From the NCBI RefSeq assembly GCF_000003815.2, contig NC_049991.1, positions 6,171,372 to 6,235,371 of the forward strand: DNA of 64,000 nt, read 5' to 3'. The position numbers were made by a program, and so were the translations under genes. Shown here piece by piece: positions 4,106 to 55,769 of the stretch. The notes under the pieces were generated by a model. That model saw only the letters and a list, made by a program, of their open reading frames with translations, made no database searches and was not told the DNA's origin. This DNA is from Branchiostoma floridae (taxonomy: Eukaryota; Chordata; Leptocardii; Amphioxiformes; Branchiostomatidae). The stretch's first letter is position 1. Every line of letters begins with the position of its first letter.

Positions 4106-4983
4106 TAAGGCCACAGCAAGTAAATTTTATGGCTGACATTCTATGCATAGTGCAAAAATAATGAGGTAGAGAGAAAAAAAAACTAGATGGGTAAAAAAAA
4201 ACAAGATGGCTAAATTTTCAAAATAAATACCATAAACGTCATAACAAGATTTGAAGTGACAAAACGTGGCATCACAAATAACAAGGCGTTCATTCCTGTA
4301 TTAAAGAAGTGAACTAGTGTAGTAAAAGTGATACTAGTATGGTACACTGGTATTACTTGCCAAGCTGGCAACTACAGCCATGGCTTCCATATTGGTGGCA
4401 ACTAGTTTAAACAATACAGAACTATTTTTTTTCGGCAATCTACAGAACCTGCTAGGCAATACTCTTGACTCCAATAGTTAATCCGAATCAGCCCGTATCC
4501 ATCTACTATTAAAGGGTTCACCTTTCCTGTCACATCATACAAACTGGAGTATCTTACAGTTAACCCAGTCACATATTGTACATACCAAACGTTTTGCAAC
4601 TACCTTGTAACCTGACTTATATGTAAATAGCTGTGAATTGTTTGTGTTGATATTGTCATTTTATTTGTTCTTGTCAGTTATCCTTTTTTGAGAGGTGATG
4701 TGAATATTAGCATACAGCTAGAGTGTATTACCTCTCTGTCCTGTTTTGTACTTTGTTGTTGAATAAATAAAATAAAAATCGTTTCACTTTTGCAACTATA
4801 GTCATGACTACTTCCCTAGTGTCACTTCTACAAGTATTATTACTAGGCTTTAACACAACATGTTTACCTATTTTTGTCTGACCATCGCCGAATAGGTAAA
4901 AAAAATTGTTGTTTTTTTCTGAAATCAGGCGAAAATTAATGAGCGCCCTGATGTCATTCATAATATTTACTTGTTGTGGCCTA
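4106..4983. mobile_element. MITE family 1, copy A (with internal insertion)
   Basis: The left end TAAGGCCACAGCAAGTAAAT and the right end ATATTTACTTGTTGTGGCCTA are inverted repeats continuing into GATGACATC-like sequence. Compared with the copy at 22539, extra DNA of about 350 bp lies between roughly 4425 and 4785. It has no transposase, so it is non-autonomous. Confidence 0.75.
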
Positions 4984-5041
4984 TAGTAGTTTTTTTTTTC
5001 CAAATACGGAGACTGGCTTCAACCTACGATGCTTCTAGCTA

Positions 5042-10186: not shown

Positions 10187-10391
10187 ATGGAGCAGCCGAG
10201 TACGGACGCTCCTGACCGAAATCGTCGAGCAGAACGAAAGAACAACCCCGATGTCAGCGGGACAAATGGACGACAGGACAGAAGCAAAGCGCTGAGGGGC
10301 AACATGGGAGGGCGACAATTAGACGAACAAGAAGTTATTGGCCAGCTAAAGATCAACTCTACTTACGGCTCCTATGATCGTGATAGCTCAG
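10187..10391 (+). CDS. Lectin gene exon 1: start codon and cytoplasmic tail
   Basis: The ATG at 10187 sits in a strong GCCATGG context and is preferred to upstream in-frame codons. The exon encodes 68 residues starting MEQPSTDAPD, rich in Arg, Asp, Asn and Gly, with no hydrophobic stretch. Near its end lies STYGSYDRDSS with two tyrosines, but not an ITIM or ITAM. It ends at a CAG/GTCAGT donor in phase 1. The frame stays open through the donor to 10627, but that part is intron containing a SINE. The 5' UTR and promoter are not identified. Confidence 0.72.
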
Positions 10392-13300
10392 GTCAGTTTT
10401 CGTTTTATCTATTGAGCAATTATCATTGTGAGAAATACTTTTTTTTTTATTTGAACGCATGTAAGAGGCAAGTAGAAACAGTCTCCTGGTTCCAGGGATT
10501 CGAAGATGCACCGAACACAGGCCCCAGCTCACAAACCCAACGCGGCAACCGCTACGCTAAAATGGGCTTGAAGGCGCTTGAAACCCACTGGTATGGTAGC
10601 AGAACACAGTATGACACGGGTACATAAAGTAGTGCGGAAAACTTGTTGAAGGAGAGGTGAAAAGCCTTATTTGAGGGGCAGCCAGATATAACCTGTGCTG
10701 TGTGGTCAAGGAAGGTGTCGACTCTGAGACTGTATGGTTTGGATCAAGGAGCTAATGTGTATATAAATGCGCCCAGTTACGCAACTGCCCTTCTAGTGTG
10801 AGCCGGCGGCAGTAAGTTGACCTCCGCAGAGAAGGCGATGCGCCGACAGGGTTCTGTTTTTTTTTTTAATATTTAGTGGCTTGTAATTCGTTTTTGGTAT
10901 TTCTAAAGTGCACTCTACACTTTTTTCCACCTCAAATCCAGTCACCTTTGGGCCTTAACTATAGAAATCCCCATAGGCTGAAAACTGTGTTCAGCTTCTT
11001 TATACTCCTCCACCTTTCCTTTGTACGTTCCTCGATTCTCCATCGTTTGATTTCCTCTTCTAGCCTGTTGCACACAGAGTCAGCATAGGAACCAGTGTAA
11101 GAGGCGAGTAGAAACAGTCTCATTGCTCCCAGGAATCGAACCCGGGTCCAAATTCACAAACCTAACGCCGTAAACACTACGCCAAAAAGGTTAGACTCCC
11201 TTTGATATGGTCGGTTTTGCGGCGTTTTAGTCCTACAGTCTACACACCACCACCAGTGGACGTAGCTCCCTACCCAATGCGGTCCATGGGCTATTTTAAC
11301 GTTAACGGTGATGGACAAATATGACAAGTTAAACTGAAAGGTGTGGACAGATTTTAAGTCTTAACCGCTAGCACTGCATATGTATGTAGGAATCCTTGAA
11401 ATAGTTGAACTGCAATTTCCAACAAAAAAAAGGGGACTCACCCAAATTTTTGACTGTACATCATCAATCTTTGTCAAGGAATGAACAATCCACTGCTGTC
11501 GTGACTTCACGTTATGCAGATAGAACACGTGACTTAGTAAGCAGTGGACCATAGGTTGCAGGAAGTCTACTGCGCCCGCCGTCTCTATAAATTCAGGGAT
11601 GGTTGTAAAGCTCTGATGGCTTCTTTAATCCCTCTAGCAAAAAAAAATAAATTCTGGTTCTGTGTCCAAGATTTCAACTTTGTCTAGTGAAACCGAAGGA
11701 TATATGTAGGAATGTTAGCTATCGATATCGTCTTGCAAGATAAATGCCCTTCCCATGTTTAGAAAATACAGACATGCATGGCAAAAGCTCGTTACTCCAA
11801 TAAAAGATAAAATTTCAAAAAGTACATAACAGAGAAAATCATATAAATTATGAAAATGTGAACGGAACCTCTTCCTTGACAATTACTGATATCAGTAAAA
11901 ATATAATCACCAACTACTGAGATGAGTACTTGTACTTATCATTCGGAAAACAGAAGAAATTTAAGACCTATCAAAAACAAATCAGTTTGGGAACACTTCA
12001 AGTCTTTTGCTCCATATTCTATCATTAGATAGAATATGAATATTCGTACTCTTGATTAAGCCACAGTAAGTAAATTTTATCGATGGCATCCTCGGCAGAC
12101 TGCAAAAATAGCGAGATGGGGCGAATGAAAGTAAGATGGATATACTGAGAAAAAAACAAGATGGCGAAATTTAAAAACAAATAGACACCTTAAACCTTGT
12201 AACAAAACCTGAAGGGGCACAACATGACATCACCGACAACAAGGCATTCATTCCTGTATTCAAGACGTGCACTGGTGTAGTAAAAGTGACACTCTTCTTC
12301 TTCTTCATTTTAAGCGCCAGCCTCATTTTGTTGAGGGCTCAGACACTGGGTGGTAGACTACTGTGGTAGACTGGTATCACTTACCAAAAAAAATTCTGAA
12401 ACCAGGCAAAAATTAATGAGCGCGCTGATGTCATCCATAAAATTTACCTGCTATGGCCTTAAGTTTTAAAACATTACTCCAGAAGCTGTGGATGGTTTTG
12501 CATGATATTTAGTAAGTACGTACGGCATGAAAAAAAAAGAAGGTTAACTACGATAATGAGCCTTCATGGACCGAGATTAAAATGTGTGTTTATTTATTAC
12601 CGATTATCATTTATTATATTTTTCAAAACATTCACATATTGAGAGACGTCAGGCGGTTATCTTGGAAATTGTTTAGTGTAGAAAATATCAGTGACTCAAA
12701 TACTTTTGTTTATGAATTATAGCACCGTATATACCTCAGGGGACCCTGAGTCAACCCTATATTAGTCTACCATGGAGAAACGTAATTAGGTAGATCAAAG
12801 ATGGCAGAAAAATACATTTAAACGTTTTGATGTTCAAATCTTATTTGCAGGCAATGGATTACATTGGACTAATGGTATCATTCCTGTATTACTCGAGTGT
12901 ATTCTAGCTCCCAAAGAGTCAGTAGCCAAAGAAGGAATAGGGGTCAAAAGCGTGTGTTTAGGTGGATAATAAATCCCTTTCGTCGGCCTCACTTCATATG
13001 AAAAGGATTTGAGATAAAATCTTGTGTATTACTGTCGTTATTTTATTGGAAAGATTCGTAATGCAGGCGATTGGCGGACGTTTACGTTTCTCTGTCCTGG
13101 GTGCTGCGGTCAGGTTTTTGCCGCTCAAAATTGACCTCTAGTGGATATTTGTTATTTGCAGTTTGTAATTGCCTGGTTCAAGTTACGGCGGCCATTTTGG
13201 ATTTTCAGGCGTCATCAGGGGTCAATGCACCAAAACGAGGCTAGAACGGCAATGATTTTTTATATCAAAGCATTTTGTCGTAAGACATCATACGAGAAGA

Positions 13301-16300
13301 TCAGTATAACGAGTTATTCTGTAAATATTGTTAAAGAGACGTGTTAACAGAACATTGCGCCGCCATCTTCCCAATCTGCAGATAATGAAGATGAAGAAGG
13401 CTGGCGTGACCAAGTGCGTCGTCTTCTGTCGGGTTCTCGGCTGGTCCACGTTGCCAAGATGACCATCGTCATGGCAACTTTGATATTAGCTGTAACACTC
13501 ATCCAGCTGCATATCAGCACGCCACATCAAGACATCAATACGGTAAGTCCTGTAGTATGCTTCATTTAAGGGTTAATGAACCGCTCCGAGGTGTATATGG
13601 TGTCATAACGCCTGGTCCTTTGCTATAACCACCGAATAAAACCACCGAAGCTCACTCGGTGGTTTCATTCGATGGTTATATTAATGCCCAGGGATTATGA
13701 CACCATATACAGCAAGGAACAGGCGGGTCATTAACGTTATTATTATATAGTCTACTATATTAACTACTACTAACGTTATTATTATATAGTCTACTATTAT
13801 ATAGTTTATTATATTATCATATAGTCTACCCAAACTTGCAAACTGCTCTGTGACGCATGTAAATCCCTTGGCACGTGTGAATTCCTTTGTCGGATTTCTA
13901 AAAATTCTAATTTGTTCTTTGGTACATACATTTGTAAAGAGTCAGATTGCATTTTGAAATCAAAACTTCCAGAAAAAATATTCTGAACATTGCAGTCTTT
14001 GGCTTTTTAGAACAAGACAATTTGCATCGACACCAGTTGCTGACCAATCAGAACGGTCGATACGCACCGGAATGGCCGCAATCTGTGTGTCACAGTGTCA
14101 TAACCAACATGGAACGGGGCCTTCTGATTGGTCCGCGGCGTCTGGCTATATGATATGGTCTATATCATATATACTCGCCACGCTTGGCCGTTTATTCAGT
14201 CGTTATAGGAACCGGCCATGAACTATGGCACCATATACACCTCAGGGTGGGTCTTTAACCCTTGAATACTAAACCTACCACACTGTTACCATTATCCATG
14301 GTTGTAAAATTTGGGCTTAAAACTTCTAATGTCTAGGCGAATTCGAACATTGTTCGAACAATTCGAACAATCGAACAATCTGCCGTAATTCGAACCAAAC
14401 CCATATTCTATTTGGTGTCATCTGCGGTCATTATAACCTGACAGTGCTGCCGGGTTCTTTTTATCTGGAGTACCTTGCATCATACAAACAAAATAGTTTG
14501 TTTTTTTCACAGATAAAAACTATTTTCTGGACATTATATCTATCCCGACACTTTGTTGGTGACCTTGGACATGTAACGAATCTACTGTAGTTTGTGTTGG
14601 TGACCTTGAACATTACAAGTGTTGTTTACCCCTCCCGCTATCCTGCGGCATAACTTGCGTGCAAACGTCGTTTAAAATAGCGACCAAGATAAGTCCAGCT
14701 GACCTCCTTAACGGCTTAAAATCACTGCAACGGTTGTCTGTTTTGAGGATATTTGAATGTTGCTCGGTTTTGAATTTTTGGTATTTGAGTGTTATTTTTA
14801 CACATATTTGTTACCCACCAGCATGGCACTAAGCTCAATAATAGAAAAAATAAATTAAAAGAATTCAAATAAAAAGTTTCAATTTACTCCTTATAGATAA
14901 AAAATGTAACAATTAGGGATTTCCGTTGATTTTCGGAGCTAATCATATCAAATGTTTGGCAAAGCACAACAATCCCTAGAACAATCGTCGTTAGCAGCAA
15001 AATTCGCAAAATCGCCTATTTAACTTAACCTTATCTAGACTGGGGCCCGCGGCAACTTTGACATTATAGCTCCCAAATGGCTTGTGCTAGAACAACCAAA
15101 CTTGGTGACTTTTCCTAGAATATTGTTGGCAACAATTTCCAAAAAATAGAGTGTGTTTATAATTTTTCGTGTTGCCAAGGCAACGGGTTTTTTCTGAAAA
15201 GCAAATTTTACAAGAATCAATAATTTTGGTTTAAACAATGGGATCTTAAGATTTTCTTGCTAATTTAAACTTCTTTTCATATATCTTTAATATCCAACAC
15301 ATCTTGGTTAAACATTTATAATTAAATATTCATAAATTATGCTAAAGAGATGACGTAATTGGTAAAAATCCAACATGGCCGACAATATCATGATGAAAAG
15401 TATAACCAGCTTATTTTCACTCGAATTTCATCACTACTTGGCATTTTCTTAAAGAAAACATTCAAATGAACGTTTTTAATCCATTTTCATGGGGTTTTAG
15501 CGTTAGATGTTGAACAAAATTTATCTTAAGACATTTAAGGTTGATAATCCAAGATAGATAAACTACAGATGACGTCATTCTATGACGTCATTTTGACGTC
15601 GTTGCGTCGGCTTTTGAAGTCTTATTACACTTAAATATTGATAAGAAACCTTTATTGGTAACTTCTTTTGTGAAATATTTAGGTTTTATGGGAATTCCCC
15701 GTTTATGCAAGGAAAATCAATTTATGACGTCATAACTACGTCACATTACGCCATAATGATATAAAAGTTTTATAAATTATAAAACTCGACCAGCATATCA
15801 CCCCCAGTAAGCCGTTTTGAAATTACGAAGGGGGGTCGAATGAACCCCCCCCCCCCGTGTACACTAAAACACAACCAGTAACTTTCTAGCGAGGACAGGT
15901 CAGCGACAATTACTACGGTGTGAATAGTCCGGATGAGTGGCGGGCCATTCTCACCCTGTCTATCATGCAAATGTCATAAACACACATCAAGCAGGCACTG
16001 TGCGGGAGTTCACACAAACAGTTCATCTATACAAGGACGTTATATCAGCCTTGATCTATATAACCTCCCTGTTCTATTTATAACGGTTAAAAGTGACCAA
16101 AAGGTGAAGAGACTAGAGAGATCTTACTACTTGAGATTTTTGAAATGATGGACCTGCAACAATTTTTGTCTCGTATTATCACGCGCTCCGTGACTTCAGT
16201 TGTATTAGCACACCTATATACATAGTGATGTATCGTGGCGTAGTGGATTAACGAGTAAACTTTTTAAACTCATGGTCTCGGGTTCAAATCCAAGTTGGTG

Positions 16301-19300
16301 TACTTTCCTTTTTTTTCGATAATATATATTTCACTATTTATCACTTATACGGTCGTTCATATTGAAATTTTGCTTTTATAAGGGTTTGCTTCTTGTGTTC
16401 ATTTCATAATAACCTTCTTGATACTATCTATTTGCGCGATCACAGTGTGTATTCATTGAAATATATTGAAGTGATACTGGTAGTTTATTGTCGAAACATT
16501 ACAGATCTGGCGGTGTAGTTTACAAACATGTCTTCGCAACTCGTCTTTAGAAGGAAACAAATGGAAGAGAGACCTTGCAGACAATCCTAGTTAAGTGGGC
16601 ACAATATACAGTCTTCATACATACCTTGTAACGTTATTTGTATTTCGAAGATTAATCAACAGACAATAGGTATGAACTATTTATCCCTGTCCCTGTCGTG
16701 CCACTAGATCAGTACGTGGTAATTGGGTACTTTGCATGTGAAGGGATCGTGTCCTCGCGAGAAATCTACTGGTTGTGTTTTAGTAACGAGACCACCCCCC
16801 CACCCTTCTCAGTCCAGGGAATGCCAACAAAGCCCACTAGTCTGGATATGTTAAATCACGGATTTCATTTTATGTCGTCCATACTATCCTGTTGTTGTTG
16901 TTTTGTTTGTTTGTTTTCAAATATTTTTCGGTTAGCAAAATATTGGCCTCGGATACTTTGTTGAAAGGGACTAGCAACGGGAAAGAATATTCAAGCAAAC
17001 GACAGTCGTATTCGTCGAATTTTCAGAGAACAAGACAGCTAGAAAAGAGTTAACTTTGTGAGGAAAATGTTTACTCGTGCAATTCTAATATATATATATA
17101 TATATGAATATAATTTAGTGGCAACACTTCATGTGTTTAAACATCATTCCGAAACAGGTGAGGAACCATTCAGCGGTCATCAGTAATCTGGAGAAACAAC
17201 TTTCGACGCTTCGGAAAGACCTCGAGACTCGCTTCGTGACGGTCAGTGAGCTAGAGGAGCAGGAAATACGTGTGGAAAGATGCATGGCACTCGTAAGCCG
17301 TCTGGAGTATCAGGTATTGAAGAGTGAGAAACGCCCCAACAACGGCTCTACACTCTACACTACCATTAAAAACCGCAACGACAACCACTCAGCAATGGTC
17401 AACCGTCTGAAGGGCCGAGGATCGACCCTGGAGAAACGCCACGAAAATCGTTCAGCACTGGTCAGCCCAGTGGAGGGTCAAGCATCAATCCCTGAGGAAC
17501 GTCTGGACAACTGCTCAGCACTGGTCAGCCGTCTGGAGGGCCAAGGATCGACCCTGGAGAAACGCCACGAAAATCGTTCAGCACTGGTCAGCCCAGTGGA
17601 GGGTCAAGCATCAATCCCTGAGGAACGTCTGGACAACTGCTCAGCCCTGGTCAGCCGTCTGGAGGGCCAAGGATCGACCCTGGAGAAACGCCACGAAAAT
17701 CGTTCAGCACTGGTCAGCCCAGTGGAGGGTCAAGCATCAATCCCTGAGGAACGTCTGGACAACTGCTCAGCCCTGGTCAGCCGTCTGGAGGGCCAAGGAT
17801 CGACCCTGGAGAAACGCCACGAAAATCGTTCAGCACTGGTCAGCCCAGTGGAGGATCAAGCATCAATCCCTGAGGAACGTCTGGACAACCGCTCATCACT
17901 GGTCAGCTGTCTGGACAACCAAATGTCAACCCTTGAGAAATGCCTAGATGACCGCTCAGCACTGGTCAGCCGTCTGGAGGACCGATTGTCCATACTTGAA
18001 AAATGCCAAAATGACCGCTCAGCACTTGTCAGCCGTCTGGAAAATCAAGTGTCAACCTTTGAGAAACGCCTAGATGACCGCTCTGCACTGGTCAGCCGTC
18101 TGGAGGACCGATTGTCCACGCTTGAAAAATGCCAAGATGACCGCTCAGCACTTGTCAGTCGTCTGGAAAATCAAGTGTCGACCTTGAGGAAACGCCAAGA
18201 CGACCGCTCAACACTGTCCAGCCGTCTGGAGGACCGAGTGTCCACGCTTGAGAAATTCCAAGATGACCGAGAGGAGGGAAAGGAAGAGAAAATAACAAAC
18301 CCGCAAAATGTCCCGAAAGGTCAGTGGAGTAGTTTCAGTTTATTTCAGTTTAATTATTTTACCAGGAATACATCTCAGGTCAGCGTTGACCTGTTTGAAC
18401 ATTGTGTGAACATAGTATTGAGTATGACTTGCCTATAATTACATTGAGCCTTTTTGCTCTTTCTTGGAGCAACTTTCCTAAAAAAAGACCATGAGTTAAA
18501 TTGTTTCGGTGCTTCCTTTTCAGCATGTTGATGGTCTTCTGTCATCTGTAAAATCTAGCCTTTTCATTGATAATTGCAGCGGTTATTCTAGAGGCATCAG
18601 ATAATAAGGTTGCAAATTGTTAAGGTTAGCTAGTTGGGTAACCCAGGCTGTGCATTGCTATACAGTGTCAACTGAACTAAATTATGTAAAACTATGAAAT
18701 ATAGTCAACTTTCTTTGCACAGCATGTCGAGTTATTTTTATATGCTTTCAGCTAGCTGATCATTGGATGTTTCTGTGTCCCAAAAAGGGTATTCCGGGTA
18801 TACGAAGCGTGGTGGAAGCTATTACAAGGTGTTTGCACAACACATGACCAACGACGCTGCCAAGCAGAGGTGTCAAGAAGATGGAGGCCATCTTGCTGAT
18901 GTCAAGACACAAGACCTGCACGACTTCCTTGTCTCCCAGATCATGAAGGTGGATGGAAGTGAAAGCCACTGGATCGGGCTACAGTATCTGTCGGTACGTG
19001 TCGTATTAGATACGATTATGTCTGGTTTCATTCTTAAATCTTTGCCCCCCCCCTCATTTCCCTGCGATAATATTTTTTTCCATTTTCTTAACTCATTCAT
19101 TTGTTCAAGTCATTCATTTTCCATCTTCTCAAGTCATTATTCTTTCACATTACCAAAACCATCCGTAGGCATTGAAAAATGGATCTTTGGCAGAGGGGGA
19201 TGCTACAAATCATCAGACAAAACATTTAAGCAAACCATTTTTCAATTAAAAAGAAAATCAAGCATACTTTCCCTCTTTCATGGTCATTTGTCTAAATTGA

Positions 19301-22300
19301 TAGAAAATCTATTGCTCAGAATATTTCAAGTTCCAAAAGATACACCGAAAAAAGTAAACATCACCAGACTTACCTGGCAATAATGGTTTTCAGCAAACCC
19401 CCCATTTTGTGCAGTGACATGTATCTGCATTCCATTGTACAGGCCAGTCTTTCCTATCCATATACATGGAAATAATGGCAAACATAAGCTGTCAAAAGTT
19501 ACCTACCTGAAGTTTAGTTTAGAACATTGATAGGGTAGTTCGGCCTCTAATGTGTCCATTTTCAACTTTCTGAAAACATTCTGACCGCTGGAATACATGT
19601 AAACCGCAGGAAAACGCACCTTGGTGATCTTTGACCTCCTCTGGCCTTCTACTGAAAGCTCAAAACTAACTTCTTTTCTAGTGTTCCAGACACCCAAAAC
19701 AGGCTTAAAAACCTACAACCCTTACCTGTAACCTACAGCTCCAAAATGCCAATATTTTCGACGAAAAACACATCTTCTGTCAGTTTTAAAACTCAATACT
19801 GTCTGGATCCCTTTGGAACCTTCTACTCAAGCGTCAATTTTTGAACTCTGCCCTACAGGGAGAGTGGAGGTGGTCAGATGGCACTGCGGCTGTCTTTACC
19901 AACTGGGCACCAGGAGAGCCTAACAATCCTGACCAGCAGTGTGTGAACCTCCGGCAGCCAGTCGGCTTTAGATGGGACGACAATCAATGCACAAAGACCA
20001 AGCACTTCATCTGTCAAATCGGTACTGTTACTCTACTCAGACTTTCAAACACTCACAAAAAGTTAAATCTCCTAACTAAGTGCCCTTTATGTGTGAATTT
20101 GTTTCGCTAAATGTTGTTGTTGTTGTCCAGGCTTTACTTCTAGTATTACGCTAGACGTGGTCTCTAGTCTCGGTGCTGAAATTTGATTTTTTTTTACGAC
20201 GCCTCAGGGGTGTCGTGTGCAATCTGCAAGAATTCTATAAATTGTATAGGAATCTGTCCACAGGAATGCTAGTCCACAGGAATGCTAGCGCTAGTCCAAA
20301 GGAATGCTAGTCCACAGGAATGCTAGTCCACAGGAATGCTAGTCCACAGGAATGCTAGTCAACAGGAATGCTAGTCCACAAGAGTGCTAGTCCACAGGAA
20401 TGCTAGTCAACAGGAATGCTAGTCAACAGGAATGCTAGTCAACAGGAGTGCTAGTCCACATAGTACATCGGGAATGTAAATTATAGAAAATGGGTCCTTC
20501 TAAAAAACAAGGACACTTGGCCACACCCGCTATCCAGATTGTAGAAAGTTTAGTTGTACATATTAGGACTCTGTATGGCATATCCCTTTTCCTGGGATGG
20601 TTTGTGAAAAACACACATTTTCTTCTCACTCGGAAAGATGACATATTTTTGAACCAGTCCAGAAAATCCAGAAAGGCCACTCACGGGCACTTTAAGGCCT
20701 GTGACAATTTTGGTCGAACATGAAATTCGAACCACTGCGTGACCTTAGGTAACCCCGCCGGGCCAGAGTGTTTTTAGAACGGTCCAATGTCAGTATCTAA
20801 TGTTACATTGCGAAAACAGGAACTTACGATGTATGGGTTACACTAACTACTTTTTAAGACTTATTAATGTTGAGTGTTAAAGATATTGATCTAGTATTTA
20901 TCAAATATCCACATAACTAGAAGCGGTTAGCAAAAGGGCACCCCCGCGAGAGCTGCAAGTGGTACAGTCCGAACATGTGTTCCGACCCCCCGGGGTGTGG
21001 AGTGGCAGGAAAACAGCGAGGCGCTCATACTTCAAGGAAACAGCAAAATAATGCTATAAATCGATATTTCTAGCCCAAAATGATTGTATGGCAGTTCACT
21101 GATGCCTTATAAGGCTAACTGCTTGCGAAATTTCGCATTGATACAACAGCGATTTAACAGATACAGACATAAAACATTCATATTTTACCATCGGTTTATG
21201 TTACGTACAGTCAAATATGTCTTTGGACGCAGTTCTTGTAGGGTAAGTAGTGTTTCGTCGGCCCCTGCCCACATCAGGGCACCAGTTTTATTACGAGTTT
21301 TGTGCAGATTTTGGTTCATTAAGCCTCAGACCTTCGGAAATCAAGCGGGTCTTCTTGCAATATCTTTTATTTCCGTGGCTGTATTGATATTTGTACGAAA
21401 AATACCCAAAAATTGTCAAAAAATTCTGTTTTTGCCCCAAAATGAAGCCTTACCTGGGTATAGCGGCAAGATCCCCAGGCATATTAGATATCACAGAGAT
21501 ATAATCTATTACTCCAGAAAATATGACTCAGTTAGACAATCATTTCATAGTGGGCACAGACCCATTTTAATAGCATCCCTATTTTTTACCAAAAAATGGT
21601 TTTTTAAACCCAAAACAGTGAGGATCCACAATTTTCTTGTCATCATATTTTGAATATGGGTGAATTACGTTAACTGGCCAAAAATTGTTGAAAACAGATG
21701 GTTACATTAAAAGTTATGGCCATATAACTGCGCGACTGAGAATCTACAGGTGTCACAGGCCTTAAACTGCCTGTGCTACAGGAAGCTGACAACAAGAGGT
21801 AGACATCCACCTAACAGTTTGCAAACAAACTCAATTGCTTTCTCTCCGGTTATACTCCCCAGAGATTGTGTATTTGGCCCATTTAAAACCTCAGAGCTAT
21901 TGTATTGTTGTTACAATGTTGTAATGCTGTTACTTCGCAACTACAACATTTTAATGTCCCAATTCTGGGCCGGGGTCATAACTGCATCAAGTCTGTCCTT
22001 TGAAAGTTTTTTCACAGACTACTTCAATTACCAAGAAAAACTAGATGTTGCAGATACGAAAAGAGTGGTTGTCATGTGGCATTGTTGACTGTATACGTAT
22101 GTATATAATACCACTTTTAAATGGAAGTAAAGAATCTTTATGAGTAGGTCGATGAAAGGACAAAAATATCTACAATACAGGAATATCCAGAAAAAAACAT
22201 TGAACTGGACATGCAATCAGTCCTAGGTTTGGCTTGTCTTATGCTCGACTCTAAAAAGACTGCAAGAGACCATCGTCGCCATAGCAAAGATTTTTATTAT

Positions 22301-25300
22301 CAATCTTGTTATACAATATGTTTCAAAGTCCGCAACAATTTCTGAATTATTCTAAAAAGCAGATCCAAACCGGCGTCCAACAACTCCGTTTGGAGCATCT
22401 ACGTATACGACAAGAATGAACTCGGAATGTTCTGAGTAAGAAATACTGAAAGAGCTTACCTGTGAACAACAACGTGCACTATTGTCTCAAAACTAATGGT
22501 AGATATATCTACGAATTCGACAACGTTTCCATCAGCGTTAGGCTAAATCAAGTAAATTTTATGGATGACATCCTCTGCAGATGGCAAAAAAAAGTGAGAT
22601 AGGGTGATAAAAAACAAGATGGGTAAAAAAACAAGATGGCTAAATGTTGCAAATATACGCACTTAACATTAAAAAAAGAAGTGAAGCGACGAAACATATG
22701 GTATCACAGCCTACAAGGCATTCCTTTCCGTATTCAAGACGTTAACTAGTGTGTAAAGGTGACACCAGTTTGGTAGACTAGTATCACTTACCAACATGGC
22801 AACGACACTCATGGCTTCCGCATTGGGACCACTGTTTCAACTATCTAACTGAATTTTTAGTTTCACTTCTACAGTCATAGCTACCTGGCTAGTGTCATTT
22901 CTACAAGTACAACCATCAGCCCATAACTGATCATCTCTGAAGAAAAAAATTGAAATCAGGCGAAAATTAATGCGCGCGCTGATGTCATCCATAAAATGTA
23001 CTTGCTGTGGCCTTACGGCGGAAAGATTAACAAAGCCGGGTAACTCTGTACAGGGGATCTGATCTCTAATACAAAAGCTTTTACACTGCAATTTACTTGC
23101 AATGAAACTGTTATCAACAGCAATTAACTCTGTTAGCGCCAATTAAACCGACTATTACATAGTAACCACCCAGGTAACAAAACTACCCCGGTGCACTAAT
23201 AGCTAGATTGGGCGTTTGGCTATATTCATCCCTAATTCTAAGATAATTGCCATCATTTGTGCTTGTTTTGTGACATTTATAATATATAAACAATATTTCA
23301 TGTCTAAGCGGGGAAGGGCAAATATATCTAAAACTTGGGCATAACAAATTAGAATTAGGCCGATTGTCACCTTGAAATAGAAATACTAAAATATAATATA
23401 GAATAAATATAATTGTACGAGAATATAATACAGAATGTCAACGATGTCAAACTATGGAAAATTTGGCAGCACTGTATCATAATTTACACGCGCTGTCCAA
23501 AACGTTGGAAAAGACGTCAAATTTCTTTAGAACATTGCGTGCTTAATTATTAAAGCCCTTTATACCCCGATTTCAAACGCCTTGCAATCACATATCCATC
23601 ATACATCTTATATAAGGACACTGGAATAAAAGAAAATAGAATTGAACAAAAAACTCTCCCCACCCACACACACCTACGTTAAACGCTGAAAATGAAGATC
23701 TGATGCAATTTACCCTAATTTTTGTACGGGGCTAAAACGGCTAACATACTAAAGTTAAATTGGGCTAATTATCAGGCAAATAATGAACGGTTGACTGCCT
23801 ACGCCTTATATCTGTCTTTGATGTTCTCTTTCCCGATTACACAATACTATCCTTACGTAGTCATTAAAGGAAATAGTCTCAATGTCTTGAATATGGGACT
23901 TTGCTTTCTGCCAAGAACTTTGACTGCCAAACAAGGCTTGCTTGACTGCCGTAAGTACTTATAAGCGATAATCCACACTGTGTACAAGTAGGCAAATATA
24001 TCCACGAATGTTTATACCATAGAACCAATAGTTTAAATGAAAAGCTAGACCCTATATGCTGATTTATTCAAACCTATAAATATCCATATATGTGTGTTCA
24101 GTTTGTTTGTTCACTTCGTGAAACGAAGGGTTTGTAGTCACTGCTGTTTTGATGTCAGGGGGTCGTTTGTCAGCCTGATAACTAGGGAACGCGTGAATGG
24201 ATGGTTTTGATACTAGTATTTGGTATGTGGGTGGGATTAGACATGACGAAAGGATGGCAGGAATTGCGTTACGGCAGGGCGCTCTAGCGGCGGGTTATGG
24301 TACTGCAGCGGAACTTCCGGTTTTGCTATTCTTTTTTGGGGACTTGTTTGGGTGATGATTTTTAAGTGTTAGGTAGCTGTGTAAAAGCATAGTAAGGTGT
24401 GTAAGTTTTGGCCACCTAGGGGTTTCGCAGGGGCGGTGAAAGTATTTTTGTTTTAGGTTTTGAGAAGGGATAATGCAAGAAGGGGTTGATTGATGTTAAT
24501 GACTGTAGGTATGCAGACAGCTTACGTAATGATGTACATAATTGTATGGTTGTTATGCAAATTAGGAGGTAATTTGCATGATACAATAGGTATGTGTAGA
24601 ATTCTTATATACGGCATGTCTGTGAACAGTCCAGCTACGTAATATCATGACAGATTGATCTGATTTTTCGTATGTAGGTAGTTGTTGAGAAGGAGAAGAA
24701 ACGTACGAGGTGTTTTTTCGTCTAGTGGCTTCTGGCGGTGTTGCAGGGGATGTTTGTACTTGAAAAATAGTGTTTAGTGTGCTAAGTGTGGCGATTTCGC
24801 AATAGTGGTTTATAATTAGGAATTACGTCATTCTGCGTGCAGTTGAGCTTGGGCCCCGGCCCCACAGGAAGTGACCCCAAAGGTCATAGTTGCGCAATAG
24901 AGGACTGCACGACTTATATATACCAGACGATTACAAGACAATGGTACTATAGGGACAGTACATTATACATGATGGGGTGTAAATGTTTCCTATAAGATTT
25001 GATAATCTGTAGATTAAGGGCAATGAATAAGGGCAATGATGATATTGTTTACAGGGGCCTATATTATACGTTTTAAAAGGGTTGTACATGTAACAGTTAC
25101 TACCGGTACAATACATTGTTGAACAAAGCAGGGTTTGTTTTTCACAGTAACTTGTAGTCACGGCAGGACTTGGGCCAGCTGAACTGAATTCACCGGGCGA
25201 CGCGCGGCTTGTCATGGTCGTCAGTAGGGCTCCCATAACCTGGCTAAATGGTTGGAAATTAACCACTCTACCCGGAAAAGTCAATACTTGGACAAATACA

Positions 25301-27656
25301 TGCGATGTACATCTCAAAGTTGAAATTTTATCAACTCACCATTTGGTTTTTATGTCCATTTGCAACGTGTTGGTGAACTTTATTTAGAATTTGTCAAAGT
25401 TATGAGACCTCTGAACATTCCTATGTCCCAAGAAATCCGCTGAAAATTCAAAAATTGGCTTTCCTTGCGGTAAATTTTTCCCTTCGAAGATTGTCGCCTT
25501 TCCTGATCATGTGTAAGGGACACGGGATCATCTAAAAAGTTCCATGAGTTGCAAGGCGCAAGCCCATATATATTATTTGTACTTTCATGTCTGGATTTCC
25601 CAGCGATTGATTAAAGGTGGGTCACAAGTGCCAATTAGCATAATCCCGCCATTTGTACTGATATGTGGCGAGAACGTTTGGGCAAGAGACACGTGGTCAT
25701 GTCAGAATTTCAATGAGTTCCAAGTCGCAAGCCCAAAATGAAAGTTATACGTTTATGTCTTGTTTTCCCAGCGATGTAATGTAGAGTATATAGGTCACAA
25801 GTGGTAATAAACATAAGCGCGTCATTTGTACTGATATGTCGCGAGAACGATTAGGTGAGAGATACGCACGGGGTCATGTCAAAAGTTCCATGAGTCACAA
25901 GTCGCAAGCCCAGATGGATAGTTATACCGTTGATGTCTTGATTTCTCTGCAATTTCATCTAGGGTAGGTCGCAAGTGCTAGTTAGCAGATTCATGTCAGT
26001 TGTACCGATAGGTTATTAAAACGATTGGGTAAGAGACAAGGGGTCATCTGAAAAGTTCCATGAGTTCCAAGTCGCAAGCCCAAAATGGAAGTTATACTTT
26101 TATGTACCTGAGGAGGAGCATTCCGTGACGACACCAGCCATCACATTTTGGAGGTGTTCGCTGGGGATGTGAAGATCATTTATGTGGATCTCACCAATGA
26201 CGGCGTTGATGTGGTCAACGTTATTGTTTTATGTGTTATCTTATTGATATTTTGATGCAACAGTCGATTTTAGCCCAGTCAATATAAGTCTTTATCTTTA
26301 ACTGGAGACCATGAAAGGTATTTTCTTTGTCCATGGAAATGAATGGACAGGGACAGTTTGTGTCATGTGCACAGACAAGAAAGGATGGATGATAGAATAT
26401 TTTTAAAATACAGCCTACTGCCTAAAGCCTTTTTTTCGGCGCACCTCACCAAACACATCAAAATCCATGTATAATTCCAACAACACTATTAAGCTAGCCA
26501 ATGACATGTCTACAAATAAACCCTGCACCACCGCACCATCACCCATTTCACGAAGGTTGAGTTCTGCGAACGCTTGTTTATTTTATTTTATTTGTTGTAC
26601 TATAAGTAGCTGTTATACATGTAGACCTTACGAAAGTCGTTGTACTTTTGTCGTGTCTCAATAAAGAATATATATGTTTTCGATTATCTGATCGTTGCAA
26701 AACCTGTTGAAATATAAGATTGTACTTGAAAAATATATATATACTAAGGCCACAGCAAGTAAATTTTATGGATGACATCAGCGCGCGCATTAATTTTCGC
26801 CTAATTTCATTTTAAAAAAATTCTTCTACAGGGATGGTCAACATGACGATAAAGTACCAAAATGAGCAAATATGTTGTGTTGTAGCCTAATAATTGTACT
26901 TGTAGAAGTGACACTTGCTACAGGACTGTAGTTGTAGAAATTAAACTTATTGGATAGTTGTAAAAAGTGAGTCCAATATGGAAGTCATGAGTGTGGTTAC
27001 CAACTTTGCTGGTAATGCCAGTCTACCACACTAGTGTCACTTTTACCCCATCAGTACATGCCTTGAATACAGGCATGAATGCCTTGTTGGCTCTGATACC
27101 ATGTTTTGTCCCTTTAATTCTTGTTACAACATTCATCACAACTTTATGGTGCCTATTTTTGAAAATGTAACATCTATTATCAGACACATCTATTATCAGA
27201 CACTCACTGGTTTTGGTTGCTTAATCATTAATTGACAGTCCTATTTATTCTTGAACTGCAGGCCCTGTCATCACTTGTCCTACTCGCTATGAACTGTTCA
27301 TGGGGAAGTGTTACCGCTTCTCCGTCGACCGCAAACCGTACAACGAGTCACGGGCCACATGTCACGAAGAAGGCGGTCGCCTAGCAACAGTGAAGAATAA
27401 CGAGACCCACAACTTCCTGGCCAATCACGTGAGAGCTACAACTAAAGCACACACCTGGATTGGGCTGACTGATGAGGCGACAGAGGGTCTGTGGGTTTGG
27501 GATTATGGCACCTTGCTGGTTGGTGATGGGATCTGGGGGACAGGCGAACCAAATGGTGGCACAGGGGAAAACTGTGTTCACATCTATCCTGATAAGGACT
27601 ACCTCTGGAATGACAGAATATGCCCAAGCTCTTACTACTACATCTGTGAAATCTAA
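10187..27656 (+). CDS. Type II membrane tandem C-type lectin with repetitive stalk (six exons, complete)
   Basis: Predicted coding exons are 10187-10391, 13382-13542, 17158-18319, 18788-18993, 19859-20021 and 27262-27656. Their lengths sum to 2292 nt, i.e. 763 residues plus stop, and every junction matches in phase (1, 0, 1, 0, 1). Order in the protein: hydrophilic cytoplasmic tail (about 1-94), one hydrophobic segment (about 95-113) with no cleavable signal peptide, a coiled-coil-like stalk of 21-residue repeats (about 123-509), CTLD1 (about 510-632) and CTLD2 (about 633-763). This is the topology of type II C-type lectin receptors: N-terminus inside, lectin heads outside. Both CTLDs carry EPN, which in this family indicates calcium-dependent mannose-class sugar binding. 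A pathogen- or glycan-recognition role is inference. No ITAM or ITIM is visible in the tail. Main uncertainty: the 7.2-kb last intron could hide a gene boundary, although the phases fit a single gene. Confidence 0.78.
10462..10565 (-). mobile_element. tRNA-derived SINE, family 2, copy 1
   Basis: On the minus strand: TAGCGTAGCGGTTGCCGCG (A-box-like), a disturbed B box (CTTCGAATCCCTGG), then the tail AGACTGTTTCTACTTGCC. It shares head and tail with the copy at 11094. It lies in lectin intron 1. Confidence 0.55.
11094..11200 (-). mobile_element. tRNA-derived SINE, family 2, copy 2
   Basis: On the minus strand: TGGCGTAGTGTTTACGGCG, then CCCGGGTTCGATTCCTGGG (a tRNA T-arm with a paired stem), then GAGACTGTTTCTACTCGCC. 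The anticodon region is not functional, so it is not a tRNA gene. Confidence 0.6.
12057..12461. mobile_element. MITE family 1, copy B
   Basis: About 405 bp, with ends TAAGCCACAGTAAGTAAATT and AATTTACCTGCTATGGCCTTA. The internal sequence matches copies A and C (AACAAGATGGC, GGCATTCATTCCTGTATTCA). It is inserted in lectin intron 1 and disturbed by a CTTCTT-rich stretch near 12296. Confidence 0.78.
13382..13542 (+). CDS. Lectin gene exon 2: transmembrane segment
   Basis: The acceptor is CTGCAG and the donor ACG/GTAAGT. The split Asp codon (G from exon 1 plus AT) restores the frame. The exon encodes an acidic then basic juxtamembrane stretch (DNEDEEGW, QVRRLL) followed by a hydrophobic run from about MTIVMATLILAVTLIQLHI, long enough for one membrane span. 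It has no stop and is too short to appear as a conventional long ORF. Basic residues on the N-terminal side fit an N-in, type II orientation. Confidence 0.75.
13568..14264. mobile_element. Nested inverted-repeat element in lectin intron 2
   Basis: AAGGGTTAATGAACCGCTCC with GAGGTGTATATGGTGTCAT at the left is inverted at the right (ATGGCACCATATACACCTCA, GGGTCTTTAACCCTT). Inside the left part a second palindrome (13571-13739) pairs CCACCGAATAAAACCACCGA with TCGGTGGTTTCATTCGATGG. A short TA-rich tandem repeat lies at 13733-13830. Confidence 0.6.
14265..17157. other. Lectin intron 2 remainder: no further exon seen
   Basis: AT-rich. It contains several TGACGTCA motifs (15560-15760), a C homopolymer near 15845 and a tRNA-like segment at 16228-16300. 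Open frames at 15933 and 16698 have no recognisable domain. Confidence 0.4.
16228..16300 (+). other. tRNA-like sequence (SINE head or tRNA pseudogene)
   Basis: GTGGCGTAGTGGATTAACG and GGGTTCAAATCC match tRNA A and B boxes with about the right spacing. The acceptor and T stems pair poorly, so a working tRNA is unlikely. Confidence 0.4.
17158..18319 (+). CDS. Lectin gene exon 3: 387-residue repetitive stalk
   Basis: The acceptor is CGAAACAG/GTGAGG (phase 0) and the donor AAAG/GTCAGT (phase 1). Fourteen consecutive 21-residue units start at 17389 and run to about 18270, preceded by more degenerate units. A typical unit reads SALVSRLEGQGSTLEK then RHENR: three heptads with hydrophobic a/d positions, as in a coiled coil. 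Units 2-8 alternate with a variant carrying SPVEGQASIPEER, whose prolines should kink or break a helix. Several units carry cysteine (DNC, EKC, SCL), which could give interchain disulphides. Many units have Asn-X-Ser sequons at the unit boundary. The exon ends in a Glu/Lys-rich linker before CTLD1. Confidence 0.8.
17389..17891 (+). repeat. Coding 126-bp tandem repeat (42-residue pair) in the stalk exon
   Basis: The pair of 63-bp units starting at 17452, 17578, 17704 and 17830 is nearly identical at the DNA level, with only a few substitutions. The units downstream of 17891 have diverged. This means recent in-frame amplification. The period is a multiple of three and of the heptad, so copy-number change would preserve both reading frame and coiled-coil register. 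Confidence 0.92.
18788..18993 (+). CDS. Lectin gene exon 4: N-terminal half of CTLD1
   Basis: The acceptor lies after the pyrimidine-rich stretch TGTTTCTGTGTCCC and AAAAG. An earlier CAG at 18751 is excluded because it would bring in the in-frame TGA at 18757. The donor is TCG/GTACGT (phase 0). The exon encodes SYYKVF, the CTLD helix segment AKQRCQEDGGHLADV, and WIGL, the hallmark of C-type lectin domains. The first cysteine of the C-terminal disulphide pair set (KQRC) is present. There is no N-terminal extra cysteine pair, so this is a short-form domain. The frame runs open past the donor to 19383, but that stretch is intron. Confidence 0.85.
19859..20021 (+). CDS. Lectin gene exon 5: C-terminal half of CTLD1
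   Basis: The acceptor is CCCTACAG and the donor ATCG/GTACTG (phase 1). The exon encodes GEWRWSDGTAAVFTNWAPG then EPNNPDQQC, RWDDNQC and HFICQIG. These are the WxWxDG, NW, EPN and terminal cysteine motifs of a sugar-binding CTLD. The usual WND calcium motif reads WDD here, a conservative Asn-to-Asp change that may or may not preserve calcium binding. Three cysteines (QQC, NQC, FIC) pair with KQRC of exon 4 in the canonical fold. Confidence 0.85.
20257..20462. repeat. 16-bp minisatellite in lectin intron 5
   Basis: About twelve copies of TCCACAGGAATGCTAG with C/A variation (TCAACAGG, TCCACAAG) and one 6-bp insertion. Confidence 0.95.
20696..21761. mobile_element. TTAA-flanked element carrying a 189-codon ORF
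   Basis: GGCCTGTGACA at the left and TGTCACAGGCC at the right are exact 11-bp inverted repeats, each bordered by TTAA (20692-20695, 21762-21765). A TTAA duplication fits piggyBac or Kolobok types. The interior has one longer plus-strand open frame (21084-21653, start read from the first ATG-like codon), basic and Phe/Ile-rich, with no recognised domain. Confidence 0.5.
21770..22535. other. Lectin intron 5: nothing recognised
   Basis: AT-rich sequence. The open frame at 21750-22088 has no domain or splice context. Confidence 0.35.
22539..23015. mobile_element. MITE family 1, copy C (best full copy)
   Basis: About 477 bp. The left end TCAAGTAAATTTTATGGATG and the right end CATCCATAAAATGTACTTG form inverted repeats of about 32 bp. 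It has no coding capacity and lies in lectin intron 5. Confidence 0.82.
23016..24114. other. Lectin intron 5: nothing recognised
   Basis: AT-rich DNA without exon-like or repeat structure that I can see. Confidence 0.35.
24115..24600 (+). repeat. Hairpin-led dispersed repeat, copy 2
   Basis: It begins with the hairpin CTTCGTGAAACGAAG, then GATAACTAGGGAACGCGTGA, ATGGATGGTTTTGATACTAG and GGAACTTCCGGTTTTGCTAT, in the same order as the copy at 9181. It lies in lectin intron 5. Confidence 0.65.
24601..25515. other. Lectin intron 5: nothing firm
   Basis: The minus-strand segment 25140-25320 has an open frame containing VMGALLTTMTSRASPGEF. It looks like part of a dispersed repeat rather than an exon, because there is no matching splice pattern. 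Confidence 0.3.
25519..26106. repeat. About 170-bp tandem repeat, 3.4 diverged units
   Basis: Units start near 25519, 25688, 25861 and 26035, each with GGTCATCTGAAAAGTTCCAT-like sequence followed by GAGTTCCAAGTCGCAAGCCC-like sequence. It lies in lectin intron 5. Confidence 0.85.
26745..27175. mobile_element. MITE family 1, copy D (inverted, one end lost)
   Basis: It starts TAAGGCCACAGCAAGTAAAT, continues through GCGCGCGCATTAATTTTCGC, and runs in the opposite orientation to copy C. The far terminus (about 80 bp) is missing. It ends less than 100 bp upstream of lectin exon 6. Confidence 0.72.
27262..27656 (+). CDS. Lectin gene exon 6: complete CTLD2 and stop
   Basis: The acceptor is TTGAACTGCAG. 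The split Gly codon (G plus GC) joins CQIG to PVITCPTRYELF. The whole domain lies in one exon: CPTRY and GKCY form the extra N-terminal disulphide of long-form CTLDs, then TCHEEGGRLATV, TWIGLTDEATEGLWVWDYG, GEPNGGTGENC, YLWNDRIC and YYYICEI, then TAA at 27654. EPN and WND are both intact, so calcium-dependent mannose-class binding is expected. Sequons NES and NET are present. The different exon structure from CTLD1 (one exon against two) suggests the two domains have separate origins or that one lost or gained an intron. Confidence 0.87.
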
Positions 27657-27844: not shown

Positions 27845-27850
27845 AATAAA
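27845..27850 (+). promoter_or_regulatory. Candidate polyadenylation signal of the lectin gene
   Basis: AATAAA occurs about 190 nt after the stop codon and just before the assembly gap, so the true cleavage site may lie inside the gap. Confidence 0.4.
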
Positions 27851-27867: not shown

Positions 27868-27967
27868 NNNNNNNNNNNNNNNNNNNNNNNNNNNNNNNNN
27901 NNNNNNNNNNNNNNNNNNNNNNNNNNNNNNNNNNNNNNNNNNNNNNNNNNNNNNNNNNNNNNNNNNN
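27868..27967. other. Assembly gap
   Basis: Exactly 100 N, usually a placeholder for a gap of unknown size, 210 nt after the lectin stop codon. Confidence 0.99.
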
Positions 27968-29006
27968 ACGTTTAAAGTGACATAGATGGAAAACGTTATC
28001 GTTCTAATTCGAAGTATGGTAGCCTGGATGTCAGACTGTTTCGAGGGCCTATACAGCCCGACTCCTCGGCTCTAGGACCAACAAGGAAAACCTACAGGAA
28101 GCCACCCCCCCCCCCCCCCCGATTTAGAGCCCGATAAATATGATAGATATTATTGAGATATAACATCTATTATCATAATACCGGTACGTTTACGACGATT
28201 TCTCTAGCCATAATAATTTGACAAATTGTCAACGCATCATTTTCTCCAGTTACATGTTGCTGTTATAGGTTACCCTTGCCACTTCTTCTGTGTAACTTTT
28301 CTGCCACTCTTGTCCTGCTAAAAGCGTAATATTGTAATTGTAAGACGCCGCGGAATTACACGGCGAACGGGCGCGTGGTTGGGAGGGGGTAAAAATACCG
28401 GCCGGAAGAAACACGTCACAATTAACTGTCGCTATATACCTTTATACATCCTCTGATGTTCATTCCTTTTCTGTTAGTAAATGCATAAAACATAAACCTG
28501 CATGAGCATACAAAATGTCATGAGAAAACGGACGTATACTGTCAAGAATTTTCATTTAACTTCTGTCCGTCACAACCGCTATGACGTAACACTTCACTGC
28601 TAGCGTAGATATAAAAATGGCGGGAAAATGGCTGTGTGCGTTCAATTTTGCCCATTCAGTCGTAGATCCGGGCTATCATGCAACGGTTCTTCACACTTTT
28701 ACATGAGTTGTTGGTCACCAACAGAAATTCAAGATTGTTGTTGAATCATGTTCGTCTTGTGCCATGAGGATGTGTAATTATGATCTTCAAATCTGGCAAT
28801 GAATGTGACAGTGTGTTCGTCCCACGACGAGCTGCCTACCCCGAAAAAGATACTGAAAACTTTTGGCCTTGTTGTCTTCGAATGCATTGATATCGATGCT
28901 TTGTAAATGATGTATTGGACACCTATTGTTGCATGTGTAGATCTCTTTAAATTCCATTATTTTTGATCGGCCGGTATAAGTCTTGCTGCCGGTATTATGC
29001 CAATGC
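27968..29006. other. No gene seen
   Basis: Non-coding, with a 17-base C homopolymer near 28106. No exon recognised. Confidence 0.4.
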
Positions 29007-29116
29007 ATGTTAGCCATCTTGTTTTTTCTCACCCATCTTGTTTTTTTTCCGCCCTATCGCACTATTTTTGCAGACTGCAGAGGATGTCATCCATAAAATT
29101 TACTTGCTGTGGCCAA
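29007..29116. mobile_element. MITE family 1, terminal fragment E
   Basis: CATCTTGTTTTTTCTCACCC, then GATGTCATCCATAAAATTTA and CTTGCTGTGGCC, is the reverse complement of the left end of copies B and C. Only about 110 bp remain. Confidence 0.7.
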
Positions 29117-29289
29117 AGTATATAGTTGGAAAACGATGCTGAAAATACCACAGTGCCAACCTATTTTAATTTTACATTGATAAACAGAATTACTTCCACC
29201 AAAATCTCGGTGAATTTTCATGCTAATGCTTTAAAAACTAATTTTGGTTGTAGTGGAGGAGGAACTTGTGATACCATCCCTGTAATTAG

Positions 29290-55760: not shown

Positions 55761-55769
55761 TGTCATTAG

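What the first reader, a model, noticed from the sequence alone, without database searches (positions are those of the whole stretch)
10187..27656. Type II membrane receptor with repeat stalk and two different C-type lectin heads
Six exons spread over 17.5 kb join in perfect phase to a 763-residue protein: tail, one membrane span, 387-residue repetitive stalk, short-form CTLD1 and long-form CTLD2. I know vertebrate type II lectins with a coiled-coil neck and one CTLD (DC-SIGN type). A neck of this length followed by two unlike CTLDs is unusual. Four exons are not obvious in ORF scans, so automated annotation may split this gene.
Basis: partly seen in the sequence, partly recalled or inferred. 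Interest (0 to 1): 0.75.

Follow-up and report, generated by a model that had tools for sequence, protein, structure and literature searches.

The report
Amphioxus membrane lectin with two heads
Six exons in what is probably lancelet (amphioxus) DNA join in frame into a predicted cell-surface receptor that likely carries two different sugar-binding heads on a long repeat stalk, and annotated relatives of that stalk end in quite different heads, so lancelets likely swap recognition domains on a shared rod.

Summary
In detail: six GT-AG exons at the stated places splice without a stop into 763 residues, with GC 0.49-0.54 against 0.36-0.40 in the introns. Two C-type lectin-like domains (CTLDs) are certain (Lectin_C, E 8.5e-42). 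The closest annotated proteins are Branchiostoma. The tail-span-stalk order is confirmed by lancelet paralogs that align across the first two splice junctions. New here: those paralogs carry other heads on the same span and stalk, a Link domain (P0001, P0002) and a PAN/Apple-like domain (P0003). The stalk is not one coiled coil: a 144-residue helix at its outer end is predicted, 130 residues of it confidently; the proline- and sequon-rich 42-residue repeats are not. The two CTLDs come from different lineages: CTLD2 keeps the calcium/sugar motifs, CTLD1 only part. The weak link is exon 5 to exon 6 across 7.2 kb: nothing independent supports it, and the closest relative of CTLD2 sits on a short neck of its own in a B. 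belcheri gene model. I give 0.6 to one transcript holding both heads. Exons 4-5 are a phase 1-1 cassette; skipping them would leave a one-headed form. New variant of a known kind.

The parts
10187..10391 (+). Exon 1: start codon and most of the cytoplasmic tail (residues 1-68)
   Evidence: GT-AG, phase 0 to 1; tblastn match of C3YRM1 (P0004) residues 112-163 at 10232-10372, 40% identity, E 0.002
13382..13542 (+). Exon 2: acidic tail end and the single membrane span (span about residues 95-115, 13459-13521)
   Evidence: tblastn match of C3YRM2 (P0003) residues 150-216 at 13369-13551, E 1.3e-5; hydropathy maximum 2.12 at residue 95
17158..18319 (+). Exon 3: 387-residue stalk
   Evidence: matches P0001-P0004 (best E 7.9e-39); P0001 and P0002 align without gaps across the exon 2/3 junction
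17383..17886 (+). Four 126-bp (42-residue) repeats; 8 prolines and 8 N-glycosylation sequons (residues 198-365)
   Evidence: copies 2-4 differ at 1-2 of 126 nt, copy 1 at 6-8
17848..18279 (+). Outer rod: one predicted helix of 144 residues (residues 353-496), largely 21-residue (three-heptad) units
   Evidence: AlphaFold2: blocks covering residues 363-492 have pLDDT 80-96, the two end blocks 50 and 52; 3.5-residue periodicity 4.78 against a shuffle maximum of 1.41 for residues 366-491
18788..18993 (+). Exon 4: first part of CTLD1 (short form)
   Evidence: CTLD profile E 2e-19 on the ORF; segments of 51-59% identity in each of P0007-P0014 and P0025
19859..20021 (+). Exon 5: second part of CTLD1 (EPN ... 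WDD); with exon 4 a 369-nt phase 1-1 cassette
   Evidence: CTLD profile E 6.7e-20 on the ORF; phases
20022..27261 (+). Intron 5, 7,240 bp; no domain found; holds two copies of a MITE-like element
27262..27656 (+). Exon 6: whole CTLD2 (long form, EPN ... WND) and stop codon
   Evidence: CTLD profile E 2.9e-40; 71% identity to P0015 residues 728-857, E 1.5e-54; lectin fold
27845..27850 (+). AATAAA, possible poly(A) signal, 189 nt after the stop codon
   Evidence: position only

Best explanation
This locus is a probable lancelet gene predicted to encode a single-pass type II membrane protein with a cytoplasmic tail of about 94 residues, one membrane span, a 387-residue repeat stalk and, likely in the same transcript, two C-type lectin-like domains of different lineages at the tip, which would act as a multivalent glycan-binding receptor. 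Shown by sequence: the exons, the span, the repeats, both CTLDs, and the homology of tail, span and stalk to annotated Branchiostoma proteins. Predicted: the outer 144 residues of the stalk form a continuous helix, about 21 nm if straight, with heptad periodicity, so several chains would bundle and cluster the heads; the 42-residue repeats nearer the membrane, with 8 prolines and 8 N-glycosylation sequons, would be a flexible or glycan-coated spacer. Predicted: CTLD2, which keeps EPN, the Glu two residues before the Cys, and WND, would bind mannose/fucose/GlcNAc-type sugars with calcium. CTLD1 keeps EPN but has Gln at that Glu and WDD, so it would bind another ligand, or bind weakly, or serve as a spacer. 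Inferred: surface recognition of microbes or glycans. The tail carries none of the YxxPhi, acidic dileucine, ITIM, hemITAM or NPxY patterns tested, so uptake or signalling would need other motifs or partner chains. Inferred: the heads were recruited onto an older tail-span-stalk unit by phase-1 exon shuffling.
For: Six in-frame exons with exon-like GC. P0003 aligns through exons 1-3 (score 112; 500 shuffles mean 31.5, maximum 57) and P0001/P0002 align without gaps across the exon 2/3 junction (89 and 88; shuffle maxima 51 and 46). Stalk homology to 7.9e-39. Other heads on the same base: Xlink 1.4e-17 (P0001) and 3.4e-17 (P0002); PAN_2 0.0012 (P0003), just under its curated cut-off. CTLD1 falls in a 14-row lancelet clade (100/99) and CTLD2 pairs with P0015 (100/99), so the two did not arise by duplication inside this gene. 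P0003 and P0004 both read LPKG near the end of the stalk, as this stalk reads VPK|G at its exon border (suggestive only, P0001 has PKG only inside its Link head). Of the 13 other CTLD1-type rows of that clade, all 12 that reach their end run past 'CQIG' into more protein; the 13th, P0025, is broken off. This exon too ends in a donor there; the CTLD2 exon is the first recognisable domain downstream, in the right phase, and ends in a stop. P0007 and P0009 show short- and long-form CTLDs in tandem in one lancelet protein.
Against: No transcript was available, and no database protein matches the whole model. A search with residues 1-185 gave none at E 1e-3 among 631 candidates, so tail homology rests on pairwise tests. 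The closest relative of CTLD2 (P0015) is preceded by its own short neck, not by a CTLD1; that model is itself a fusion with a choline transporter. Chimeric lancelet gene models, among them a Lectin_C fusion refuted by ESTs, are documented (PMC4967905, passages), and this model could be of that kind. My exon scan of intron 5 recovered only 1 of 4 known exons, so an overlooked exon is not excluded.
Confidence: 0.6

Rival explanations
1. Two neighbouring genes: a tail-span-stalk-CTLD1 receptor ending in an unseen last exon after 20021, and a separate neck-plus-CTLD2 gene whose first exons lie between about 20.1 and 27.2 kb.
For: P0015 of B. belcheri joins a 71% identical CTLD to a short neck instead of a CTLD1; intron 5 is the longest (7,240 bp); lancelet gene fusions are a known error (PMC4967905).
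Against: No match to the P0015 neck (residues 601-728) anywhere in the window outside the repeat stalk, at E up to 5; none of the nine ORFs of 60 or more residues on the + strand of intron 5 has a Pfam match reaching its curated cut-off (two sub-threshold matches at 0.033 and 0.091 look like chance). The first AATAAA or ATTAAA after 20021 is at 21706. Both searches would miss a short or diverged exon.
Confidence: 0.27
2. One gene with alternative heads (not exclusive of the best explanation): the stalk donor 18319 and the CTLD2 acceptor 27262 are both phase 1, so exon 3 can join exon 6 directly and give a 640-residue receptor with CTLD2 alone, beside or instead of the two-headed form.
For: Exons 4+5 are 369 nt with phases 1-1; the skipped form stays in frame, 640 residues plus stop. 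In P0015 the same type of CTLD follows a neck directly.
Against: No transcript evidence. Phase 1-1 exons are frequent in lancelets, more so among domain exons (PMC4284660, passages), so compatibility is expected by default.
Confidence: 0.3
3. A pseudogene or a haplotype-specific, dispensable copy with no function.
For: Lectin_C is over-represented among dispensable lancelet genes (PMC12373286, passages); MITE-like copies lie in the introns.
Against: No frameshift or stop in 2,292 nt; the core cysteines of both CTLDs are kept; synonymous exceeds non-synonymous divergence in 11 of 15 comparisons of the last six stalk units (pairs not independent).
Confidence: 0.08

Closest known systems
Lancelet tail-span-stalk paralogs C3YRM2 (P0003), C3YRM1 (P0004), LOC144868504 (P0001) and 'kinesin-like protein 2' (P0002)
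   Same: P0003: tail, span and sequon-rich stalk in the same order; P0001 and P0002: same span start and stalk
   Different: Heads are PAN/Apple-like (P0003) or Link (P0001, P0002), not CTLDs. P0004 has tail and stalk homology but no span and no recognised head in its model. P0001 and P0002 as annotated begin at a Met inside the span and lack the tail.
Kupffer cell receptor CLEC4F and langerin
   Same: Type II, extended heptad neck forming a trimeric coiled coil, C-terminal lectin domain; tail, span and neck each in single exons (PMC6422238, passages). CLEC4F is among the nearest solved CTLDs to CTLD2 (E 6.3e-21).
   Different: One CTLD encoded by three exons; here CTLD1 is in two exons and CTLD2 in one, and there are two CTLDs. 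The searches made here found no vertebrate relative of tail, span or stalk.
DC-SIGN / L-SIGN (CD209, CD209L) and CD23
   Same: Type II, repeated neck, C-terminal CTLD (PMC7822156, passages); cow CD23, DC-SIGNR and DC-SIGN lead the fold matches of CTLD2
   Different: 23-residue neck repeats as printed there (this rod has 21-residue units), one CTLD; a proline/sequon repeat block is not known to me in them (recall)
Mannose receptor family (MRC1, MRC2, PLA2R1, LY75)
   Same: Several CTLDs in one chain; best PDB matches of the tandem
   Different: Type I receptors with 8-10 CTLDs (recalled); here type II with two
C. elegans CLEC-38 and insect immulectins
   Same: [quoted passage not shown] two CTLDs in each is from recall
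   Different: No repeat stalk known to me (recall); not compared by sequence here
Lancelet tandem-CTLD proteins P0007, P0009, and lancelet ApeC proteins with two consecutive CTLDs
   Same: P0007/P0009: short- and long-form CTLDs in one protein; 40 and 42% identity over 98-99% of the CTLD region. [quoted passage not shown]
   Different: P0007/P0009 have pentraxin and MAM-like domains and no stalk match; the ApeC proteins have CUB and ApeC domains

Membership tests
C-type lectin-like domain (Pfam Lectin_C, PF00059) | profile score above the curated cut-off, two domains | tested here: met
   142.7 bits against 22.6, two stretches
C-type lectin-like domain (Pfam Lectin_C, PF00059) | calcium/sugar site with EPN or QPD, and WND (motifs recalled) | tested here: inconclusive
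   CTLD2: EPN, Glu two before the Cys, WND, all present. CTLD1: EPN but Gln at that place and WDD. Binding itself not testable here.
Vertebrate type II lectin receptors with neck (group 2: CLEC4F, langerin, DC-SIGN) | type II single span | tested here: met
   one hydrophobic segment, charge bias, no other window above 1.2
Vertebrate type II lectin receptors with neck (group 2: CLEC4F, langerin, DC-SIGN) | coiled-coil neck that oligomerises | tested here: inconclusive
   144-residue helix with heptad periodicity predicted; oligomer state not testable
Vertebrate type II lectin receptors with neck (group 2: CLEC4F, langerin, DC-SIGN) | one C-terminal CTLD in three exons (CLEC4F) | tested here: not met
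   two CTLDs in the model, in two exons and one exon (CLEC4F)
Mannose receptor family | type I topology with 8-10 CTLDs (recalled) | tested here: not met
   type II, two CTLDs
Lancelet tail-span-stalk family (P0001-P0004 and this gene) | homologous span and stalk in the same order | tested here: met
   met for P0001, P0002 and P0003; P0004 lacks the span in its model
Lancelet tail-span-stalk family (P0001-P0004 and this gene) | shared cytoplasmic tail | tested here: inconclusive
   P0004 E 0.002 and P0003 pairwise; tail absent in P0001/P0002 models; database search with residues 1-185 empty

The most novel reading that the evidence does not exclude
Lancelets have a family of type II surface receptors built on a constant tail-span-rod unit to which phase-1 head exons (Link, PAN/Apple, one or two CTLDs) are exchanged in evolution and, through the symmetric exon 4-5 cassette, also in splicing, so that one rod presents alternative or paired recognition heads.
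Probability: 0.4. Interest if true: 0.65.

Novelty: new variant of a known kind. Interest (0 to 1): 0.45.

Why it matters
Vertebrate type II lectin receptors put one CTLD on a neck. A chordate outgroup that puts two unlike CTLDs, a Link domain or a PAN/Apple domain on one homologous rod would show how such receptors can be assembled by exon shuffling, and it gives concrete junctions to test in the dispute over whether lancelet domain novelties are real (PMC4284660) or gene-prediction errors (PMC4967905).

Tried and rejected
Internal duplication as the source of the two CTLDs: rejected, they fall in different clades. Other CTLD exons, or a second copy of this gene, in the window: none found. 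A P0015-like neck exon in intron 5: no match. De novo exon scan of intron 5: zero candidates, but it recovered only 1 of 4 known exons, so it says nothing. Tail and span database search: empty. Whole-genome search for further family members: not completed. The whole stalk as one coiled coil: not supported by prediction (from five sequences), and the inner 75 residues do not beat shuffles in heptad periodicity (1.10 against a maximum of 1.14). Known uptake or signalling motifs in the tail: seven patterns scanned; apart from a bare LL and an acidic cluster, none.

Literature: ten searches of open-licence PMC papers; I saw listings only (titles and starts of abstracts), except passages of PMC4967905, PMC12373286, PMC6422238, PMC4284660, PMC3130637 and PMC7822156. 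In those listings I saw no description of this architecture; the exact pair 'type II transmembrane' and 'two C-type lectin domains' gave 0 papers. Papers outside that library were not searched.

Full report
What is there. The six exons join to 2,292 nt with no stop before the TAA at 27654-27656. All borders are GT-AG and the exons are clearly richer in GC than the introns. The start codon at 10187 is the first ATG of its open frame. An AATAAA lies 189 nt after the stop codon.

Where it comes from. Four of the 6 proteins found with the whole model (only the 7,993 candidates sharing most words were scored) and 11 of the 31 found with the CTLD region (386 candidates) are Branchiostoma; the best four and the best nine are among them. 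I infer a lancelet; no call identified the species. No database protein matches the whole model. Proteins shorter than 0.55 or longer than 1.75 times the model were not candidates, so split annotations would be missed.

Tail, span and stalk. The exon 2 region matches C3YRM2 (P0003) at E 1.3e-5, exon 1 matches C3YRM1 (P0004) at 0.002, and the stalk matches P0001-P0004. P0003 aligns through exons 1, 2 and 3 with score 112 (500 shuffles: maximum 57). P0001 and P0002 align without gaps across the exon 2/3 junction with 89 and 88 (maxima 51 and 46); P0004 reaches 78 (maximum 58) over the tail but lacks the span. This supports the first two joins from outside. Against it: a database search with residues 1-185 found nothing at E 1e-3 among 631 candidates.

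Swapped heads. P0001 and P0002 end in a Link domain (1.4e-17 and 3.4e-17), P0003 in a PAN-like domain (0.0012, 19.4 bits against a cut-off of 21.1; its UniRef name is Apple domain-containing protein), P0004 in nothing recognised, and the window gene in CTLDs. These are database gene models, and fusion errors are common in lancelets (PMC4967905), so each stalk-head join needs transcripts.

Stalk. Residues 198-491 are fourteen 21-residue units; the first eight alternate in two types, making four 42-residue repeats, of which copies 2-4 differ at 1-2 of 126 nt and copy 1 at 6-8, a sign of recent duplication or conversion. The whole stalk has a 3.5-residue hydrophobic period (7.54 against a shuffle maximum of 1.2). 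AlphaFold2 on five sequences (mean pLDDT 61.8, pTM 0.25) gives one 144-residue helix at residues 353-496, of which the blocks over residues 363-492 have pLDDT 80-96, and pLDDT under 50 through most of the 42-residue repeats. Those repeats hold 8 prolines and 8 sequons; the last six units hold no proline and one sequon. I infer an outer rod and an inner flexible, glycosylated spacer.

Heads. CTLD1 lacks the N-terminal disulfide pair and CTLD2 has it. In a tree of 47 of the 84 CTLD rows extracted, CTLD1 lies in a 14-row lancelet clade (100/99) and CTLD2 pairs with P0015 (100/99). CTLD2 has EPN, the Glu two before the Cys, and WND; CTLD1 has EPN, Gln and WDD; the role of these residues is recalled from mannose-binding protein. 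The model of CTLD2 alone (mean pLDDT 75.7, pTM 0.76, with residues 80-90 and 96-100, part of the EPN loop, under 50) matches cow CD23, DC-SIGNR and DC-SIGN at TM-scores of 0.67-0.68, rmsd near 6 and E of 4e-9 to 7e-9.

The weak link. Exon 5 ends in a phase-1 donor just after 'CQIG', where 12 of 12 related lancelet CTLDs that reach that point run on into further protein. Exon 6 is the first recognisable domain downstream and fits the phase. Against this, P0015 shows the same type of CTLD behind a short neck; no such neck was found in the window, but a diverged or short exon could be missed. I put 0.6 on one transcript holding both heads. Because exons 4-5 are 369 nt in phase 1-1, skipping them gives an in-frame one-headed receptor. 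The literature reports a high share of 1-1 phase exons and fast exon shuffling in lancelets (PMC4284660, passages), and Lectin_C enrichment among dispensable genes (PMC12373286, passages); both fit.

Verdict. A real, probably functional gene of a known kind, type II lectin receptors, in a variant with two unlike heads, belonging to a lancelet group of stalk proteins with exchanged heads.

Noticed in passing
window 22536-23017; pieces at 4105-4412, 4818-4988, 12057-12461, 26745-27122, 29006-29124: MITE-like dispersed element, complete copy 482 bp with 37-nt terminal inverted repeats (86% complementary); copies or pieces lie in introns 1 and 5, and pieces on both sides bracket the CTLD2 exon.
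   Followed up: partly
window 42139-43865: Reverse transcriptase fragment (RVT_1, 9.3e-16 on the first ORF) spread over several overlapping frames, a decayed retroelement.
   Followed up: partly
window 55756-56403 and 56416-56566: 33-bp tandem array of about 20 copies that stays open in several frames, followed by about 4.6 copies that by eye run in the opposite orientation.
   Followed up: no
window 20248-20460: 16-bp tandem repeat, about 13 copies, shortly after exon 5.
   Followed up: no
P0015 (B. belcheri, named 'High affinity choline transporter 1'): Annotated protein joins a sodium:solute symporter to a neck and CTLD, probably a gene-prediction fusion.
   Followed up: partly
P0025 (B. 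belcheri, Bbelb_155010): Another lancelet protein with a hydrophobic segment near its N-terminus and a CTLD1-type domain, the domain broken off in the model.
   Followed up: no
window 27868-27967: Gap of 100 N, 17 nt after the possible poly(A) signal.
   Followed up: no
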